This document shows, piece after piece, positions 1,317-53,828 of a stretch of DNA of 55,192 bases. Made by a program: the position numbers and the translations under genes. The stretch lies in the IMG/VR virus record IMGVR_UViG_3300009183_000115, positions 1 to 55,192 of that record. The stretch is one strand, 5' to 3'. This stretch comes from a virus. The notes under the pieces were generated by a model, which searched no databases, was not told the origin of the DNA, and saw nothing but the letters and a program-made list of their open reading frames with translations. The stretch's first letter is position 1, and the number at the start of each line of letters is the position of its first letter.

Positions 1317-3029
1317 CTAGCTAGCTTGAGCAACTTGTAAATCAGAAACGTACACTTTACCATAGTACTCAGGACGGATCATCTTCTTAGCGTAACGAGT
1401 CATGATACCTTTACGTGGAGTGAAGGTATTTGGATCGTAAACTAAAGGAGTCATAATCAATGGTACATAAGGAGCATAAACGGCACCACACTCTAAGAAT
1501 TGGTTACCACGGAAGCCCATTAAGATTGTGTTTTCAGTCATGTAAGGGTTTTTGTAAACCTTGTAACGACTGTTTAAAGCACCAACCTTTTGTACACCGA
1601 ATGCATACTTCATAGTATCTGCTGCACCATCAGTATCAGCTGCAAATCCAGGAATTGATTCCAAGATAGTAGCTACTGTTGGAGAACATACTAAGAAATT
1701 AGCACCACCACGTAAAGTTAATTGGTGGATTTTGTTAGATACCGCTTGTAATTTGATACCTAATGTTTGGAACCAACTCATTTGGTTGTAGTAAGCACCA
1801 GCTGTGTTAGAAACATAAGCTGTACCTGCTTGGTTGATTTGGTTACCGATTTGAGCTGACCAGTTAGCAACTGTTTGAGCGTTCTCAATTAACATATCTA
1901 AGATTTCTAAGTCAATCTCTAAAGAGATGTACTCAGATAACATTCCTGTTAATTCAGCCTCAGCATCTAAGCTATGGTAAGCATTCAAATCTTGTGCAAA
2001 TTCTGGAGTCCATTGTGCTTTCAACTTACGAGTCTTAGCAGAAATAGTCTCAGACTTCATTTGTACGTTGATCTCAGGGATAACGATTGAAGCAGAAGAA
2101 GCAGCGTTCGGGTTAGAGAATGGAGCAGGAGTGTCTGTTGGAGCATCTTCAAAATCACCACGTGTTTGGAAGTTAGTAGACTTGTTGTAGAATAAAGTTG
2201 TACCTAAACCGCCACCTACGCCAGAACCAGAAAGAGAAGTCTGTACTGTTGCTAAGCTAGAACCGCTTACAAAGAATACTAAGTTACCGCCACTGATTAC
2301 TGTGAAATCACTAATCTGTGTAGCAGGAGTAATAGAAGCATTTACGCTACCAGATAATTCAAAAGCACGAACACCGTTAGTGTCTAATACTAATGAGTTA
2401 GTAGGAACTGTAATAGCAATCATTTTGCTATCTACTATTGATTGAGAATAATCAGAGTTGAAATCAACTTGTTGGAAAGTTGCTACTGCTGCAGTTACTG
2501 AACCAGAAGCATAAGAAGCAGAAAATTGGTTAATTGAATAACCGAAACGGCCTTGACCATATAAACCACCAGAAGCTAAGTTACCGAAGCCACTGTTAGG
2601 AGTTTGGTTTAAAGTACCATATACTGATTGACCTTGTACGAAAGGTTTAGGTATATTGTTACCGTATTGGAAATCCAAGTAGAATACTAAACCTGCAGGT
2701 AAGTTCATTGGTTGAACTGAAACGAACTCTTTTGCAGCGATTTGACCGAAGATCTTACGAACTAACGGTAAAGCAACTCCAGCCCATTGTTCACCATTAC
2801 CTGGTGTGAAAGTAGCACCGTTTGTAACGTTACCACCTGTTGATGATTGTTCCATCACTAATTGCTTAGCTTGGTTTTCTAAGATAACAGCCATGTTGTT
2901 TCTATCGTAGTCTTTTAAACCCTCAAGTAAACCACTTTTAGCCCATTTCTTAGACAATTTTTGGCTAACACCTAGCTGATCGCTGTATGGGTTAGCGCTC
3001 TCTAATAGAGATTGTACTAAATTTGACAT
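1317..3029 (-). CDS. 23: major capsid protein, T4 gp23-like
   Basis: This 570-residue protein forms the hexameric capsid lattice. Residues 104-122 (VQPMNLPAGLVFYLDFQYG) closely match the VQPMNSPTG region of T4 gp23. The C-terminal part carries the conserved YKVYKNPY, GAVYAPYVPL and PRKGIMTRYAKK blocks. The first 60 residues look like the cleaved propeptide: VME60 fits the prohead-protease consensus (aliphatic-x-Glu) at almost the position used in T4 (E65), and ILE51 is an alternative site. The middle (about 160-320) is a Ser/Gly-rich insertion, making it somewhat longer than the 521-residue T4 protein. It is the last gene of the operon terminase-portal-protease-scaffold-capsid and is followed by a strong terminator. 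Identity is nearly certain. Confidence 0.97.
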   Translation of the reverse strand: MSNLVQSLLESANPYSDQLGVSQKLSKKWAKSGLLEGLKDYDRNNMAVILENQAKQLVMEQSSTGGNVTNGATFTPGNGEQWAGVALPLVRKIFGQIAAKEFVSVQPMNLPAGLVFYLDFQYGNNIPKPFVQGQSVYGTLNQTPNSGFGNLASGGLYGQGRFGYSINQFSASYASGSVTAAVATFQQVDFNSDYSQSIVDSKMIAITVPTNSLVLDTNGVRAFELSGSVNASITPATQISDFTVISGGNLVFFVSGSSLATVQTSLSGSGVGGGLGTTLFYNKSTNFQTRGDFEDAPTDTPAPFSNPNAASSASIVIPEINVQMKSETISAKTRKLKAQWTPEFAQDLNAYHSLDAEAELTGMLSEYISLEIDLEILDMLIENAQTVANWSAQIGNQINQAGTAYVSNTAGAYYNQMSWFQTLGIKLQAVSNKIHQLTLRGGANFLVCSPTVATILESIPGFAADTDGAADTMKYAFGVQKVGALNSRYKVYKNPYMTENTILMGFRGNQFLECGAVYAPYVPLIMTPLVYDPNTFTPRKGIMTRYAKKMIRPEYYGKVYVSDLQVAQAS

Positions 3030-4485: not shown

Positions 4486-5115
4486 TCACTTAATGCAACA
4501 TACACCTGATTGTGTACAGATAATGTCTGAAATAAGTCTATTAATGTCGTTTTGCTTACTGCGAGGCTCTTGTGCGTTGTAAGATTCATTTAATCCGCCT
4601 ACTGGTTTAACATATGCACCGTAAGTACTTGGGGTTGAAACGAAATCCCAGCAAATTAATTCTAAATCTTCGCCAACTTGTACAAGACCTTCACCTATTG
4701 GTGTAACAGATCCCATTGCTCTTGACGAAACTCCTACATTAATACCTGCAAGAAATAATTCTTTTAAAATATTTCCTGAAGGTGTGTCTAATACTTCGAA
4801 TTCACCGTATAGGTCTTTACCCTCCCACCACATTCTTGTAATATTATGACAAACATTCTTAAGATTTATAATAGAAGTCTCAGGATGATCTAATTCACCT
4901 AAAGCTCTCTTCTCTGCTACTGGACCTTCTACATACAGTTCTACTTGTCTTTGTAATGTATCATAGTCGTAAATACGCTTATTAGCATTAGGTTTGTCAG
5001 CAGCCTGTACCTTGCCTGATACTAGGAATTTAGATCTTGGATTCATTTTAGCCTCGTGCAATTGCTGCGGAAGCGGCTTAAACGTTAGGTATTCTATTAG
5101 AACTTCTTTATTCAT
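4486..5115 (-). CDS. 21: prohead core protease, T4 gp21-like (peptidase S77)
   Basis: This 209-residue serine protease cleaves scaffold, capsid and internal proteins after aliphatic-x-Glu during head maturation. Visible family motifs are GELDHPE with the likely catalytic His77, and GVSSRAMGS with the likely catalytic Ser130 or Ser131. The first block (SGKVQAADKPNANKRIY) is also typical. The length matches T4 gp21 (212). The C-terminal tail ends in a Cys-containing CTQSGVCCIK stretch that I do not recognise. It starts 1 nt after the stop of the gene at 5117-6391 and is followed by a hairpin terminator. Its expected cleavage rule is relevant to the many Glu-containing N-termini elsewhere in this window. 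Confidence 0.93.
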   Translation of the reverse strand: MNKEVLIEYLTFKPLPQQLHEAKMNPRSKFLVSGKVQAADKPNANKRIYDYDTLQRQVELYVEGPVAEKRALGELDHPETSIINLKNVCHNITRMWWEGKDLYGEFEVLDTPSGNILKELFLAGINVGVSSRAMGSVTPIGEGLVQVGEDLELICWDFVSTPSTYGAYVKPVGGLNESYNAQEPRSKQNDINRLISDIICTQSGVCCIK

Positions 5116-13874: not shown

Positions 13875-14333
13875 TTATCTTTTAACGTTTTTCCACATTG
13901 CAGCAGCTGCAATTTTCTGTCCTTTTTCACCGCCGCCTGCTGCTTGAGCTATTTTCTCAAAACCTTTTCCTTTATGTCCAATATCTTTACCTGCTTTTGC
14001 TTTTTTAACTACAGCAGATTTTTTTGCCGTACTTAAACCAGCAGAAGGTTTAGATTCTTCCATACTATAGCCAGGTCCTGGTTGAGGCATTTCTGCAGTC
14101 TGTCCTGCCATATATTCAGCTACTGAATGTAAATAATCGGATGCCAAGGTAATGTAGGAAGACACCCAACCAGGTAAGTTGTCGTTATCACCTATCATGT
14201 TTTGAATCTTAGATGCGTTTGAAATAGCATCTTTAAGTTCACTATGAGCCATTGAGGCTTCATGATCATGTCCATGATTCCAATCACGTCCGCAATTTTC
14301 ACATTCCGGTAATAAATTTTTTAATTTAATCAT
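13875..14333 (-). CDS. small protein with targeting-like N-terminus and basic tail
   Basis: This 152-residue protein begins MIKLKNLLPE, the recurring N-terminus of this phage. Residues 13-30 contain CENCGRDWNHGHDHE, a possible metal site. The middle LPGWVSSYITLASDYLHSV is a helix that I recall from many T4-like phages. The C-terminus is Lys/Gly/Ala-rich and ends AAAAMWKNVKR. The basic tail fits packaging with DNA. Its ATG overlaps the previous stop (ATGA), so it is translationally coupled. Cleavage after PE10 by the prohead protease is a hypothesis. Confidence 0.7.
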   Translation of the reverse strand: MIKLKNLLPECENCGRDWNHGHDHEASMAHSELKDAISNASKIQNMIGDNDNLPGWVSSYITLASDYLHSVAEYMAGQTAEMPQPGPGYSMEESKPSAGLSTAKKSAVVKKAKAGKDIGHKGKGFEKIAQAAGGGEKGQKIAAAAMWKNVKR

Positions 14334-14686: not shown

Positions 14687-14874
14687 TAACAGTGGTAATT
14701 TAAATATCTTTGTAATGCTTTCGCATAATGTGTACCTTTATTTTTTAATTTACTCTTTGCAGATCTTACTCGACTGCATGAAAGTTTACCTAATCTATTT
14801 TTTAAGATACCAGGTTTAACTGGATCGTCAATTCCTTTTTTGATCTCTGTTACTATGTCAATTAAGCTTATCAT
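14686..14874 (-). CDS. small basic protein with targeting-like N-terminus
   Basis: From ATG 14874 this is 62 residues. That start is preferred over an upstream TTG because it forms an ATGA overlap with the previous stop (14871) and gives MISLIDIVTEIKKG, matching the recurring N-terminus. The rest is strongly basic (RLGKLSCSRVRSAKSKLK) and ends HYAKALQRYLNYHC, a segment I recall from T4-like phages. It probably binds DNA. With the Glu at position 10 it looks like a small internal head protein; this is inference. Confidence 0.7.
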   Translation of the reverse strand: MISLIDIVTEIKKGIDDPVKPGILKNRLGKLSCSRVRSAKSKLKNKGTHYAKALQRYLNYHC

Positions 14875-15263
14875 TTTGTCTTGCCCCAAGTTTTACCTTT
14901 TCCTTTTCTACTACATTGTGAAGGTGTTGGACGGCAGGAAGGATACTTTGCTCTCGTTTCACCTTCTTGTCTACCGCAAGGCTTACATTTTTTCTTACCG
15001 TCAACTTCACGACACGTATTACAATCTACCCATCCCTTTGCACTTCCTGTGCCTCCTTTTCTAGAAAACCATTTATGTAATGATTCCTTCTCTTCTACTA
15101 AATCCTCTTCTTTTAACCCTTTCCAAATCTCTCCTCTTCTACATCTTACAATTGCACCAGAGCGGTATGCAGAAGGTTTATCGTACTTACGACGTGCAAT
15201 TCTAAGACAACGATCGTCTTTTCCTTCTATTATTTCAAATAATATATCTATTAATTTTACCAT
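14871..15263 (-). CDS. Cys-rich basic protein (DUF5872-like) with targeting-like N-terminus
   Basis: This 130-residue protein has three parts: the recurring N-terminus MVKLIDILFEIIEG; a short DDRCLRIARRKY-PSAYRSGAIVRCRRG module; and a C-terminal module KSLH-type KWFSRKGG with GWVDCNTCREVDGKKKCKPCG and CRPTPSQCS. The last resembles the DUF5872 family common in T4-like phages (family name from memory). Paired CxxC motifs suggest zinc binding and the Arg/Lys content suggests nucleic-acid binding. It overlaps the genes on both sides. Packaging in the virion is inferred. Confidence 0.75.
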   Translation of the reverse strand: MVKLIDILFEIIEGKDDRCLRIARRKYDKPSAYRSGAIVRCRRGEIWKGLKEEDLVEEKESLHKWFSRKGGTGSAKGWVDCNTCREVDGKKKCKPCGRQEGETRAKYPSCRPTPSQCSRKGKGKTWGKTK

Positions 15264-17403: not shown

Positions 17404-18183
17404 TTATTTTTTTATAACTCTAAAAGCATCTCCCGTAGACATTAAACTGTAGTTTGAGGGAAGGTTTTTATTTAAATATGCTGCGTAAATATTACCTCGT
17501 CTTTTATCATCTGGTCCTCCAGTCTTTATTGGTCGAAAATAGATAGCGTTGGGTTTAGCTCTTTCGATAAAGTCTTTTGCAATTTCTACAACAGTAGACA
17601 TTACCTTTAACATCGCACCTTCGTTAGTGTCTAATTCAGGATGATTTACAGTATTAAAAGCTAGTTCATACATACCGTCTTCTAGATTAGCTACACCTAC
17701 TGCGTACTTATGTTTGTCTGTACTAAACAGATAAAAATAATTACCATCGCCATCTACTTCATCAAAATGCCAAGGAAAAGCTTTAGTACCTTCCCCTATT
17801 TCGTTTAAAGATTCCATTTGAGTTAAATCGTAAATAGCTACATTTCTTTTACCGTAATCTCTCATTAATATACCCGCCATAGCGTTAGCATCATTCTCTA
17901 TCTCTGTACCAGTATTACCTGCTTCATCGTAGATCATATCTAATTCATTCTGTCTGTGATGACATAATTCATGAGCAAGACTGCGGCAAATATCTGCTAA
18001 ATTTCTACCAGAAGAGAATACCTTTACGGTATTAGTTTGAGGATTATATTCGCCATAAGATCTGTTATGTTCAACAAAAGACCTATCTTTAATCAAAGAA
18101 ATTTTAGGTAGAGATTGAATATTTAATTCTCCTTTACAAAAAGCAATAAAGTCTTTTAATGTACTAAGCTTGTTTTGGTTCAT
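17404..18183 (-). CDS. putative zinc metallopeptidase (HExxH) with C-terminal phage domain
   Basis: This 259-residue protein has LAHELCHHRQ at 69-78: the HExxH site His71, Glu72, His75, with Glu94 or Glu96 as possible third ligand (TEIENDANAMAG). This suggests a peptidase domain over about 1-125. The C-terminal part (about 140-259) is a separate domain with KYAVGVANLEDGMYELAF and DDKRRGNIYAAYLNKNLP, found in other phage proteins next to varied enzymes. No signal peptide. Being in a row of probable virion cargo, it might be injected or act in maturation; both are speculation. It overlaps the upstream gene by 20 nt. Confidence 0.75.
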   Translation of the reverse strand: MNQNKLSTLKDFIAFCKGELNIQSLPKISLIKDRSFVEHNRSYGEYNPQTNTVKVFSSGRNLADICRSLAHELCHHRQNELDMIYDEAGNTGTEIENDANAMAGILMRDYGKRNVAIYDLTQMESLNEIGEGTKAFPWHFDEVDGDGNYFYLFSTDKHKYAVGVANLEDGMYELAFNTVNHPELDTNEGAMLKVMSTVVEIAKDFIERAKPNAIYFRPIKTGGPDDKRRGNIYAAYLNKNLPSNYSLMSTGDAFRVIKK

Positions 18184-18763
18184 CTCCTTTTACTTTAGTT
18201 GCTAACATTTTAAATACCTTAGGTGCTACACCTTTATTATAAGCAGCTTCAGGAACAGCTTCTTTAAAAGCTTCAAAATCTCCACTTGCTAAAATATTTC
18301 TAACAGCTGGCGCTGAAATATTACCTGATTTTTCGTGTACTGGAATTGTTTTAACTCTATCGCCAAAGTCTTGTTGTAAGGCTTTACCGTACTGTATGTC
18401 GTCTATTTCGTCATCTCCTGTAGCAATATAAACTGGATCTACAGTTGGATTTGCTTTTAAGTAATTAATAATAGTTACAATAGGTGATTCATCTGTAGAA
18501 ATTCTAACAGAAATTTTAGGATTAGGTTCGGCTTTTAAATACATATTCCAAATTGTAAGAGAATCTTCAGGTGTAATACCGTCAATTGTCTTCTTACTTA
18601 TGATAATATATACCATCTTTATATAATCTCTACCAGCTAATTCTGTTGCAGCTTCGTAGTGACCCTTATGTGGCGGTTTAAATTTACCTGGGTAGAAGCA
18701 AGGACCTGCTTCATTTATAATAGCTTCGGCAATTCTCTTACCAATTGATATAGGGTTAATCAT
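18164..18763 (-). CDS. cytidylyltransferase-like nucleotidyltransferase
   Basis: This 199-residue HIGH-superfamily enzyme shows FYPGKFKPPHKGHYEA with the HxGH site (32-35) and ISAPAVR (149-155), the counterpart of the ISxTxxR motif. TGDDEIDD lies between. Such enzymes transfer AMP or CMP onto phosphorylated substrates, and NMN adenylyltransferases of NAD synthesis are close relatives; the substrate here is unknown. The first 20 residues (MINPISIGKRIAEAIINEAG) precede the fold and resemble a targeting peptide with an aliphatic-x-Glu site. It has a CTATTTAT element 6 nt before its ATG and heads the run of coupled genes down to 12.8 kb. Confidence 0.85.
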   Translation of the reverse strand: MINPISIGKRIAEAIINEAGPCFYPGKFKPPHKGHYEAATELAGRDYIKMVYIIISKKTIDGITPEDSLTIWNMYLKAEPNPKISVRISTDESPIVTIINYLKANPTVDPVYIATGDDEIDDIQYGKALQQDFGDRVKTIPVHEKSGNISAPAVRNILASGDFEAFKEAVPEAAYNKGVAPKVFKMLATKVKGDEPKQA

Positions 18764-20369: not shown

Positions 20370-20837
20370 TTATTCTGAATCTACCAAATCTTTCCTGAAG
20401 AACTTAGCAAGTATATTGTCGTTGTAAGATTTATCGGTTAAAAGCACTTCATTTATACATTGATAGTGTAATTCCCAATAGGTTAATTGCTTTTTATTAA
20501 AGCAGAATTTGAGTATTTCTTTACGAAACATAGAGGTACCTTCTTCTTTAATTTCCTGTAAGATTCCCTTATTAGACCCCCAGTAATCCATCCAATTTGA
20601 CTCGGATGTGACCAGCTTTTTAGTAGGTTTTCTACCTGGGCCGCTTAATTCGGAAAGTTCTTTTTTAGTTAGCTTCTTTTTAACGTTTGAATAGAGAGAT
20701 TTTCTACCAATATAAAATTTTCCAGTTTGTATATTTGTGATTTTATACACAAATCCAATGCAGTTTTTAGGAAATTTATCAACAGAATCGTACTCTACGA
20801 CGCTTCCATCTTCGTATATAAACCATTTTTGTGACAT
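20370..20837 (-). CDS. GIY-YIG family endonuclease
   Basis: This 155-residue protein has the GIY-YIG pattern at 28-47 (GFVYKITNIQTGKFYIGRKS), followed by a charged insertion and a helical NWMDYWGSNKGILQEI segment typical of phage members. It resembles small T4-like homing or Seg-type endonucleases lacking a clear separate DNA-binding domain. It stands between the primase and the fibre/sugar region; a free-standing homing endonuclease could have aided exchange of that region. The stop-to-start gap to the primase gene is 33 nt. Confidence 0.82.
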   Translation of the reverse strand: MSQKWFIYEDGSVVEYDSVDKFPKNCIGFVYKITNIQTGKFYIGRKSLYSNVKKKLTKKELSELSGPGRKPTKKLVTSESNWMDYWGSNKGILQEIKEEGTSMFRKEILKFCFNKKQLTYWELHYQCINEVLLTDKSYNDNILAKFFRKDLVDSE

Positions 20838-50265: not shown

Positions 50266-50514
50266 TTATAATAGTATATAAGTTCTTAAAAACTCTTCGA
50301 TATCAGATTGTGCATATCCAGCTTGTCTTAATCTAGAACACATTTTACCCAAATCATGTAGAGTTTGAAACTCTCTTCCAATTAAAGCTTGATGTATTTT
50401 GTTTAATTGACCGTTATCCTCAAAAATACCGCTAGGATCATCGAAAGTCTTCCCTACTTGGTATTGAGTATTTTCAGGATGGTTAATTTGTATTAATTCA
50501 GATAGTTTAATCAT
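50266..50514 (-). CDS. 82-residue protein with targeting-like N-terminus
   Basis: It begins MIKLSELIQINHPENTQYQV, one of the set of related N-termini, followed by a helical region (QTLHDLGKMCSRLRQAGYAQ) and an end LRTYILL. I do not recognise it. A CTATTTAT element abuts the upstream stop and lies 4 nt before its ATG. Confidence 0.6.
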   Translation of the reverse strand: MIKLSELIQINHPENTQYQVGKTFDDPSGIFEDNGQLNKIHQALIGREFQTLHDLGKMCSRLRQAGYAQSDIEEFLRTYILL

Positions 50515-51562: not shown

Positions 51563-52561
51563 TTACCCCTTTAAGTCGCCGCTTTTTAAATTATAAAGGA
51601 CGTAACCGTGAAAATTATTATGACTCTTATTAAGGTTAGCATTTAGGATAGAAACTCTCTCTCTATACATTTTATTTACTTTCTCTAGCTCTGCAAATTT
51701 ATCTTGAAGAAATTTAGAAGATTTAAACTTAGGATTACTTTTAATTTGATCTAATTGTGTAAGAGCTTCTTCTTCACTTCCTAAAGGCTTTTCATTACTC
51801 TCTTTAACTTTTTCTTTTATAGCTTCAATACCTCCAAATAACTTATAAAAATCATCTCCAGTATGCATATTATCATCTATAATAAGCATTATCTTACCTT
51901 CAGTTAAACACTTTACAATTACATTATAAACAGGAGGAAATTTTTCTCCCTCACCGCTTGGATGTAATCCTACATTATATTTTGAATAGAGTTGTTTAGT
52001 CAGAGCAGATTGTAGCTCGTTTGATTTACGAATCTTATAAGGAGGTGCCTTTTCTGCAGTCTTATAAAGAAAGTTTATGATAGTACGCTTAATAGAATCA
52101 GCATGTCGATTAAACTTATCCCAATCTACAGCGTTATCGATTATATTATACTCCATTTTTTCAATGTGTACAACTTCTGGATTATCGTAAAGCTCTTTAA
52201 TAGTATTTAAAAGAACTTGATTCAGACCTCCCTTAGATTCTAAATAACCAATATAATCTACTTTAGGAATACGCGTTAGGAGGGTTCTAGAAAGAAGAGC
52301 TTTTAATTCTTCCGGTTTTATCTTATCGGAATTATACTTAAGTGCATCTTCAGAGGCCTTTATATTAGATGCTTCAGGATCAGACTCTAAGCTATAGAAT
52401 ACTTCATATCCGTTTTTTTTAATTCTACCGTCGTATGTATTAAGCTGTTCGCCATCTAGGTGTGTAAAAGCTATATCGATTTTACTAGCCTTGCCAGTAT
52501 CATCGAAAGTAACTCTAGCTCCCTCTTGAACCTCCCTTAATAAGTCTATTAGCTTAATCAT
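51563..52561 (-). CDS. phosphoribosyltransferase-like protein with targeting-like N-terminus
   Basis: From ATG 52561 (MIKLIDLLREVQEG) this is 332 residues; ATG 52567 adds two residues and would touch the promoter-like element. Residues 224-241 (IMLIIDDNMHTGDDFYKL) match the PRPP-binding loop of type I phosphoribosyltransferases (hydrophobic strand, Asp-Asp, then T-G). Upstream VDYIGYLESKGGLNQVL could be the core strand and loop. The C-terminal 80 residues are coiled coil. The sugar-phosphate substrate is unknown. The N-terminus suggests it is packaged in the head. Confidence 0.6.
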   Translation of the reverse strand: MIKLIDLLREVQEGARVTFDDTGKASKIDIAFTHLDGEQLNTYDGRIKKNGYEVFYSLESDPEASNIKASEDALKYNSDKIKPEELKALLSRTLLTRIPKVDYIGYLESKGGLNQVLLNTIKELYDNPEVVHIEKMEYNIIDNAVDWDKFNRHADSIKRTIINFLYKTAEKAPPYKIRKSNELQSALTKQLYSKYNVGLHPSGEGEKFPPVYNVIVKCLTEGKIMLIIDDNMHTGDDFYKLFGGIEAIKEKVKESNEKPLGSEEEALTQLDQIKSNPKFKSSKFLQDKFAELEKVNKMYRERVSILNANLNKSHNNFHGYVLYNLKSGDLKG

Positions 52562-52567
52562 ACACAT

Positions 52568-53357: not shown

Positions 53358-53816
53358 TTAATATTTTATATTAACCTCAATTCCTTTTTCTTTACATAGC
53401 TCAAGTACCTTATCATAATGTTTACGGTTAAAATTATCTCTAGGCTCGGATAAGAAATCAATACGTTCAACATAATCTAGAATAGGAATACAAAACCATT
53501 CTCTTTTTACAATCTGCTCTTCTGCCTCACTTCCCCCATACCCAGTATCAGAGAAGGGTCTAATTTTATACCTTTGACTTAGCCTATTACCGTCTAAAAC
53601 AAAGCGCAATTCATCACCTCCTTCGTGGGAGAGAAAATTACCGTGTAGTTTTGAGTCCCTTGAAAGAGAAATAGCATACATCCCGTCATTATAAGCCTCT
53701 CTACTACTACAGAGCTTGTTTGTCTTTATAATATCGGAAGCATTAAAATAACGAGTATGGTGGTATAAAGTACCAACTTGCTTTCTTTCTTGTATTAAAT
53801 CTACTAGCTTAATCAT
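53358..53816 (-). CDS. ADP-ribosyltransferase-like protein with targeting-like N-terminus
   Basis: This 152-residue protein begins MIKLVDLIQE, then GTLYHHT (15-21), AISLSRD (48-54) and EAEEQIVKRE (97-106). The order His/Tyr strand, S-x-S-like strand, acidic E-x-E motif recalls the fold of ADP-ribosyltransferases. The short length fits a catalytic domain only. T4 packages the ADP-ribosyltransferase Alt in its head and injects it to modify host RNA polymerase, which makes this a possible Alt-like protein. A clear Arg of the R-S-E type is not certain. A CTATTTAT element lies 4 nt before its ATG. Confidence 0.55.
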   Translation of the reverse strand: MIKLVDLIQERKQVGTLYHHTRYFNASDIIKTNKLCSSREAYNDGMYAISLSRDSKLHGNFLSHEGGDELRFVLDGNRLSQRYKIRPFSDTGYGGSEAEEQIVKREWFCIPILDYVERIDFLSEPRDNFNRKHYDKVLELCKEKGIEVNIKY

Positions 53817-53820
53817 GTAA

Positions 53821-53828
53821 ATAAATAG
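53821..53828 (-). promoter_or_regulatory. candidate late promoter element CTATTTAT
   Basis: Abuts the TAG-type stop at 53829 and lies 4 nt before the ATG at 53816 (AGCTATTTATTTACATG). Confidence 0.5.

What the first reader, a model, noticed from the sequence alone, without database searches (positions are those of the whole stretch)
53358..53816. Possible Alt-like injected ADP-ribosyltransferase
A 152-residue protein combines the cargo-type leader MIKLVDLIQE with motifs in the order LYHHT, SLSRD, EAEEQ that recall an ADP-ribosyltransferase core. T4 Alt is an ADP-ribosyltransferase that travels in the head and modifies host RNA polymerase. The present protein is far shorter and unlike Alt in sequence, so it could be an independent solution.
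Basis: partly seen in the sequence, partly recalled or inferred. Interest (0 to 1): 0.65.

Follow-up and report, generated by a model that had tools for sequence, protein, structure and literature searches.

The report
Phage head-packaged DarT-like ADP-ribosyltransferase
A T4-like phage (its capsid resembles that of phages of Bacteroidetes) carries a small, unannotated enzyme that is predicted to be packed inside the virus head, injected with the DNA, and to attach ADP-ribose from NAD to something in the host; its fold matches the bacterial DNA-modifying toxin DarT rather than the known T4 enzyme Alt.

Summary
In detail: a 152-aa ORF on the minus strand (53358-53816) has the leader MIKLVDLIQE and the motifs LYHHT, SLSRD and EAEEQ in that order. 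Pfam, PHROGs, NCBIfam and PDB sequence searches with this protein alone give nothing usable. It belongs to a divergent, unannotated phage family in which H19, S50, R53, E97 and E99 are nearly invariant. AlphaFold2 models of this protein (pLDDT 89.9) and of a relative (87.5) match ADP-ribosyltransferases (ARTs) in the PDB, best DarT and Tpt1/KptA; the family profile matches the sequence of DarT1 (E 2.7e-4). T4 Alt shows no sequence relationship. The leader fits the capsid-targeting grammar of T4 IPIII (hydrophobic at 4 and 7, L/I at 8, E at 10), is shared by three other window proteins, and the window encodes a gp21-type head protease. Head packaging of phage ARTs is an established idea (PMC9503650); new here are this compact DarT-like family, its capsid-targeting-type leaders, tandem arrays and an ART-Nudix fusion. 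Activity, target and packaging remain inferred.

The parts
53358..53816 (-). 152-aa DarT/Tpt1-like ADP-ribosyltransferase with N-terminal capsid-targeting-type leader
53787..53816 (-). Codons 1-10, MIKLVDLIQE: leader with the T4 IPIII capsid-targeting grammar; predicted head-protease cut after E10
   Evidence: low confidence and a separate short helix in the model
53754..53768 (-). LYHHT (codons 17-21), ART motif I; H19 44/44
   Evidence: first strand 16-21
53655..53669 (-). SLSRD (codons 50-54), ART motif II; S50 43/44, R53 42/44
   Evidence: second strand 47-52
53514..53528 (-). EAEEQ (codons 97-101), ART motif III ExE; E99 44/44, E97 40/44
   Evidence: strand 95-104
53820..53828 (-). CTATTTATT just upstream of the start codon, shared by other genes of the block; possible late promoter
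51563..52567 (-). Neighbouring unknown protein whose second Met starts the leader MIKLIDLLRE
13875..14333 (-). Unknown protein with leader MIKLKNLLPE
14871..15263 (-). Protein with leader MVKLIDILFE; weak DUF5872 match
4486..5115 (-). T4 gp21-type head maturation protease, the expected leader-cutting enzyme
   Evidence: PHROG 207 E 6.8e-48; 35% identity to T4 gp21
1317..3029 (-). T4 gp23-type major capsid protein

Best explanation
The gene encodes a compact NAD-dependent mono-ADP-ribosyltransferase of the DarT/Tpt1-like fold that is carried in the virion head. The first ten residues target the newly made protein into the prohead core, the phage's gp21-type protease cuts after Glu10, and the mature enzyme of about 142 residues is ejected with the DNA and modifies a host macromolecule at the start of infection. 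H19/T21 and R53 would position NAD and E99 (with E97) would be the catalytic glutamate. Shown: ORF, family, conserved residues, predicted fold, leader grammar, protease gene. Inferred: NAD binding, catalysis, packaging, cleavage, injection, target. The target is not determined; the nearest solved relatives modify nucleic acids, but the loop before the ExE motif is very short here.
For: Model of P0001 with a 44-sequence alignment: pLDDT 89.9, pTM 0.84. PDB fold search: Tpt1 E 2e-4, DarT2-NAD 1.3e-3, Mtb DarT 8e-3, all prob >=0.99, then KptA, then noise. Second member (170 aa, leader MKTYQEFLTE): DarT2, DarT1, Tpt1 and other ARTs fill most of the top 30. Family profile vs PDB sequences: DarT1 E 2.7e-4, the other three hits being KptA and DarT2. 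Single members give weak Pfam hits to PARP, PTS_2-RNA, Tox-ART-HYD1 and ART-PolyVal. T4 work shows that 10 residues of IPIII suffice for packaging, that targeting depends on residues 4 and 7 and processing on 8 and 10, and that gp21 cuts after L/I-x-E (PMC9026906); MIKLVDLIQE fits. Strict grammar: 4/61 window N-termini vs 0/272 internal Met; 12/39 family members vs 7/587 other ORFs, two of those seven being T4's own head proteins and one the window's neighbour gene. One relative starts MKTYQEFLTE against T4 IPIII MKTYQEFIAE. gp21, gp23, gp20 and gp17 homologues are in the window.
Against: No assay and no virion proteomics. TM-scores to solved ARTs are modest (0.48-0.52 by query length). The upstream Arg that is essential in DarT1/DarT2 (R52/R51, PMC11543638) has no conserved counterpart in the family. 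Many family members (for example the Dickeya copies) have no such leader, so packaging by this route cannot be general for the family. Leader counts within the family are not independent because members are related. The gene is about 49 kb from the protease gene, in a co-directional late-type block but not beside the head genes.
Confidence: 0.62

Rival explanations
1. It is an active ADP-ribosyltransferase but not virion cargo: it is made in the infected cell, for host control or exclusion of other phages, and the leader is incidental.
For: Many relatives lack the leader; T4 ModA and ModB are non-packaged phage ARTs; about half of phage ARTs in the published survey are outside head-packaging contexts (PMC9503650).
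Against: Exact match to the IPIII targeting grammar, leader shared by otherwise unrelated window proteins, gp21-type protease present.
Confidence: 0.22
2. It is a KptA/Tpt1-type RNA 2'-phosphotransferase used in RNA repair.
For: Tpt1 is the top PDB fold hit and KptA is among the profile hits; KptA occurs in phages (PMC9503650).
Against: The family has an invariant catalytic-type glutamate (E99, ExE), which the H-H-h clade of RNA-repair ARTs does not use (PMC9503650 names clades by these residues; placing KptA in that clade is from general knowledge); no room for the N-terminal domain of Tpt1 in 152 aa; leader and tandem arrays suit effectors better.
Confidence: 0.06
3. It is a degenerate ART fold without catalysis, for example a binding protein or a structural head protein.
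For: ART folds can lose activity; a weak Atu_ph07 relative has lost motif residues.
Against: H19, S50, R53, E97 and E99 are kept in 91-100% of 44 divergent sequences, which is hard to explain without catalysis.
Confidence: 0.07

Closest known systems
T4 Alt (virion-packaged RNA polymerase ADP-ribosyltransferase)
   Same: Same proposed life style: ART in a T4-type head, N-terminal leader removed by a gp21-type protease (Alt begins MELITELFDE).
   Different: 682 aa vs 152 aa; no sequence relationship (hhalign probability 0.1%); His instead of Arg in motif I; different ART clade.
DarT1/DarT2 (DNA-base ADP-ribosylating toxins of DarTG)
   Same: Best profile match (DarT1) and among best fold matches; H-x-T motif, serine in the second strand, catalytic Glu.
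   Different: Catalytic Arg upstream of the second strand not conserved; the segment between the conserved Pro and ExE is only 9 residues in this protein (8-32 in the family), so a DarT-like DNA-binding loop is unlikely; no DarG/NADAR antitoxin recognised next to it; phage gene with leader.
Tpt1/KptA RNA 2'-phosphotransferase
   Same: ART fold, H-x-T motif.
   Different: ExE glutamate present; no N-terminal domain.
T4 internal proteins IPI/IPII/IPIII
   Same: Ten-residue capsid-targeting leader with L/I-x-E cut site (IPII, IPIII).
   Different: IPs are not ARTs.
Phage ART families of Iyer et al. 2022 (PMC9503650), incl. ORF28, N4-like, p0068-like
   Same: Phage and viral ARTs, often head-associated; the viral fold search also hits a baculovirus ORF32 and IIV6 422L, which may be ORF28-type.

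Membership tests
ADP-ribosyltransferase superfamily | Split six-strand ART core | tested here: met
   Two independent models, PDB top hits nearly all ARTs
ADP-ribosyltransferase superfamily | Three conserved active-site motifs in order | tested here: met
   H19, S50/R53, E97xE99 at strand positions expected for motifs I-III
ADP-ribosyltransferase superfamily | Transfers ADP-ribose from NAD | not testable with these tools
   Needs purified protein
T4 Alt/VIP2 family (R-S-E) | Arg in motif I and sequence similarity to Alt | tested here: not met
   His at motif I in 44/44; hhalign probability 0.1% to Alt
DarT1/DarT2 | Fold and profile similarity | tested here: met
DarT1/DarT2 | Essential Arg (R52/R51) before the second strand | tested here: not met
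   No conserved Arg there in A5
DarT1/DarT2 | Cognate antitoxin gene (DarG macrodomain or NADAR) | tested here: inconclusive
   Neighbours tested have no such family match; macro/NADAR not searched across the window or the rest of the phage genome
KptA/Tpt1 | H-H-h active site without catalytic Glu | tested here: not met
   E99 44/44
T4-type capsid-targeted internal protein | N-terminal 10-mer with targeting residues 4 and 7, cut site L/I-x-E at 8-10 | tested here: met
   MIKLVDLIQE: L4, L7, I8, E10
T4-type capsid-targeted internal protein | gp21-type protease in the same phage | tested here: met
   4486-5115
T4-type capsid-targeted internal protein | Present and cleaved in virions | not testable with these tools
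   Needs virion proteomics

The most novel reading that the evidence does not exclude
This is a separate, previously unnamed DarT-like clade of phage ARTs that are delivered in the virion and ADP-ribosylate host (or rival phage) nucleic acid, so that phages inject the same kind of chemistry that bacteria use against them in DarTG.
Probability: 0.25. Interest if true: 0.78.

Novelty: new variant of a known kind. Interest (0 to 1): 0.52.

Why it matters
T4 Alt is the textbook case of a head-packaged ADP-ribosyltransferase. Here a structurally different, very small ART family appears with the same kind of packaging tag in other T4-type phages, sometimes in tandem arrays of two to five copies and once fused to a Nudix domain. 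It gives a directly testable set of candidate injected effectors, and the leader grammar gives a way to list further head cargo from sequence alone. The variable loop before the catalytic ExE suggests that copies may have different targets.

Tried and rejected
The weak Pfam hit LigD_N (E 0.047) was dropped as chance because the fold search does not support it. Virion proteomics of Atu_ph07 was considered: its only relative is weak (E 0.0038), is CDS 354 by counting protein accessions, lies outside the three main virion-gene clusters, and the supplementary table could not be opened. A genome-wide leader count in Microcystis phage Mel-JY01 gave only 3 ORFs of 90 aa or more (one an ART copy), so leader sharing there is not impressive. 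N4 gp53 and T4 ModA/ModB gave no convincing profile match. No plasmid match for a close relative.

Full report
What is there. The finding's coordinates hold an ORF on the minus strand, 53816 down to 53358, 152 aa. The plausible genes of the window all lie on the minus strand (61 were used), and they include T4-type terminase, portal, gp21 head protease and gp23 capsid protein. The capsid protein is nearest to Flavobacterium phage immuto (54%) and Microcystis phage Mel-JY01 (50%), so the window is part of a T4-like phage, probably of a Bacteroidota host (inference). The record is 55 kb and may be a fragment.

Family. Searches with this protein alone in Pfam, PHROGs and PDB sequences give nothing usable. 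tblastn against named phages gives weak but consistent relatives in large phages. Aligning eight sequences leaves M1, H19, S50, R53, E97 and E99 as the only invariant positions. A DNA pattern for LYHxT....NA..I[IL] in IMG/VR returned 100 stretches; hmmsearch with the first profile showed several dozen members. In 44 chosen sequences S50 is 43/44, R53 42/44, E97 40/44 and E99 44/44. The pattern itself selected for H19, T21, N25, A26 and I29 in most of these, and an earlier scan selected ExE in a few, so those counts are partly biased; S50 and R53 are unbiased. No family in Pfam, PHROGs, NCBIfam or PADLOC covers the group.

Fold. AlphaFold2 with the 44-sequence alignment gave pLDDT 89.9 and pTM 0.84; residues 1-10 have low confidence (65) and form a separate short helix before the domain starts at about residue 16. 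Against the PDB the first eight hits are Tpt1/KptA and DarT, the top three at probability 0.99 or more, and everything below is noise. A second member, with the T4-like leader MKTYQEFLTE, gave pLDDT 87.5, and most of its top 30 PDB hits are ARTs: DarT2, DarT1, Tpt1, PARP4, RhsP2. The sequence profile independently finds DarT1 at E 2.7e-4, with KptA and DarT2 as the only others. H19 lies in the first strand, S50 in the second, and E97/E99 in strand 95-104, which is the ART arrangement. The signature is His-Ser-Glu with ExE. It is not the Arg-Ser-Glu of Alt, and hhalign with Alt gives nothing. Two differences from DarT matter: the Arg that DarT1 and DarT2 need (R52/R51; PMC11543638) has no conserved counterpart, and the segment before ExE that corresponds to the substrate loop is only 9 residues here, 8 to 32 in the family. 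So the chemistry is probably transfer of ADP-ribose, but the substrate cannot be read from the resemblance to DarT.

Leader. Work on T4 showed that ten residues of IPIII are enough for packaging, that residues 4 and 7 matter for targeting and 8 and 10 for processing, and that gp21 cuts after L/I-x-E (PMC9026906). MIKLVDLIQE has L4, L7, I8 and E10. With that grammar taken from T4, 4 of 61 window N-termini match and 0 of 272 internal Met positions do; the other three matching proteins (13875-14333, 14871-15263, 51563-52567) share the leader and show no family relation to the ART. Among family members whose domain is N-terminal, 12 of 39 match against 7 of 587 other ORFs in the fetched loci. The family members are related, so the 12 are not independent; but the leaders differ in sequence (MHNFKQYLEE, MKSFSEFLTE, MIRLIDLLRE, MKTYQEFLTE), and the last is 8 of 10 identical to T4 IPIII. 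A looser grammar was also tried and is far less specific. The predicted mature protein is about 142 residues, small enough for passage through a portal (inference, by analogy with IPI in PMC9026906).

Context in relatives. Copies occur in tandem: five in Alishewanella phage Slickus01, three in Mel-JY01, two in Dickeya JA13, two or three in several IMG/VR contigs. One relative fuses leader, ART and a NUDIX domain that passes Pfam's cut-off (L028). In others the domain sits inside ORFs of 1,100-1,900 aa, one of which also carries ART-PolyVal and GNAT domains (L021; the match of the family domain there is weaker). This resembles the polyvalent and head-packaged effectors of earlier surveys (PMC5512222, found, and PMC9503650).

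Known or new. PMC9503650 reports that about 30% of myoviruses encode ARTs and that about 44% of phage ARTs lie in contexts suggestive of head packaging. A head-packaged phage ART is therefore a known kind. What seems new is this compact DarT-like group without a family entry, and the tie to a T4-type capsid-targeting leader.

Verdict. ART fold: about 0.95. Catalytically active: about 0.8. Virion cargo: about 0.7. Identity of the target: open.

Noticed in passing
window 51563-52567, 13875-14333, 14871-15263 (all -): Three more proteins with the same M[IV]KLxxLLxE-type leader and no recognised function: further head-cargo candidates. 50266-50514 (MIKLSELIQI) is similar but lacks the Glu.
   Followed up: partly
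window, minus strand, e.g. 53828, 53357, 54119, 52575, 50526, 1254: CTATTTAT occurs 14 times on the coding strand against 2 on the other (about 3 expected); TATTTAT often starts 11-13 nt before start codons. Possibly a late promoter of this phage type.
   Followed up: partly
L028:3434-4375 (-): Relative with leader MTLVEKILQE, ART domain and a C-terminal NUDIX domain (41.5 bits, cut-off 21.1): an ART-Nudix fusion.
   Followed up: partly
L004, L003, L070, L081, L026/L073, L111, L051: Family members in tandem arrays of two to five diverged copies, and double-domain proteins, suggesting diversifying effectors.
   Followed up: partly
window 18164-18763 (-): Protein with GKFKPPHKGH near its N-terminus, resembling nucleotidyltransferases of the NMNAT/cytidylyltransferase type, and with a possible leader; a link to NAD metabolism is conceivable.
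   Followed up: no
G008:C1:249737-250075: Family match with two in-frame TAG codons in a 415-kb phage record: pseudogene or TAG recoding.
   Followed up: no
window 20370-20837 (-): SegE-type GIY-YIG endonuclease (Pfam E 3e-25).
   Followed up: no
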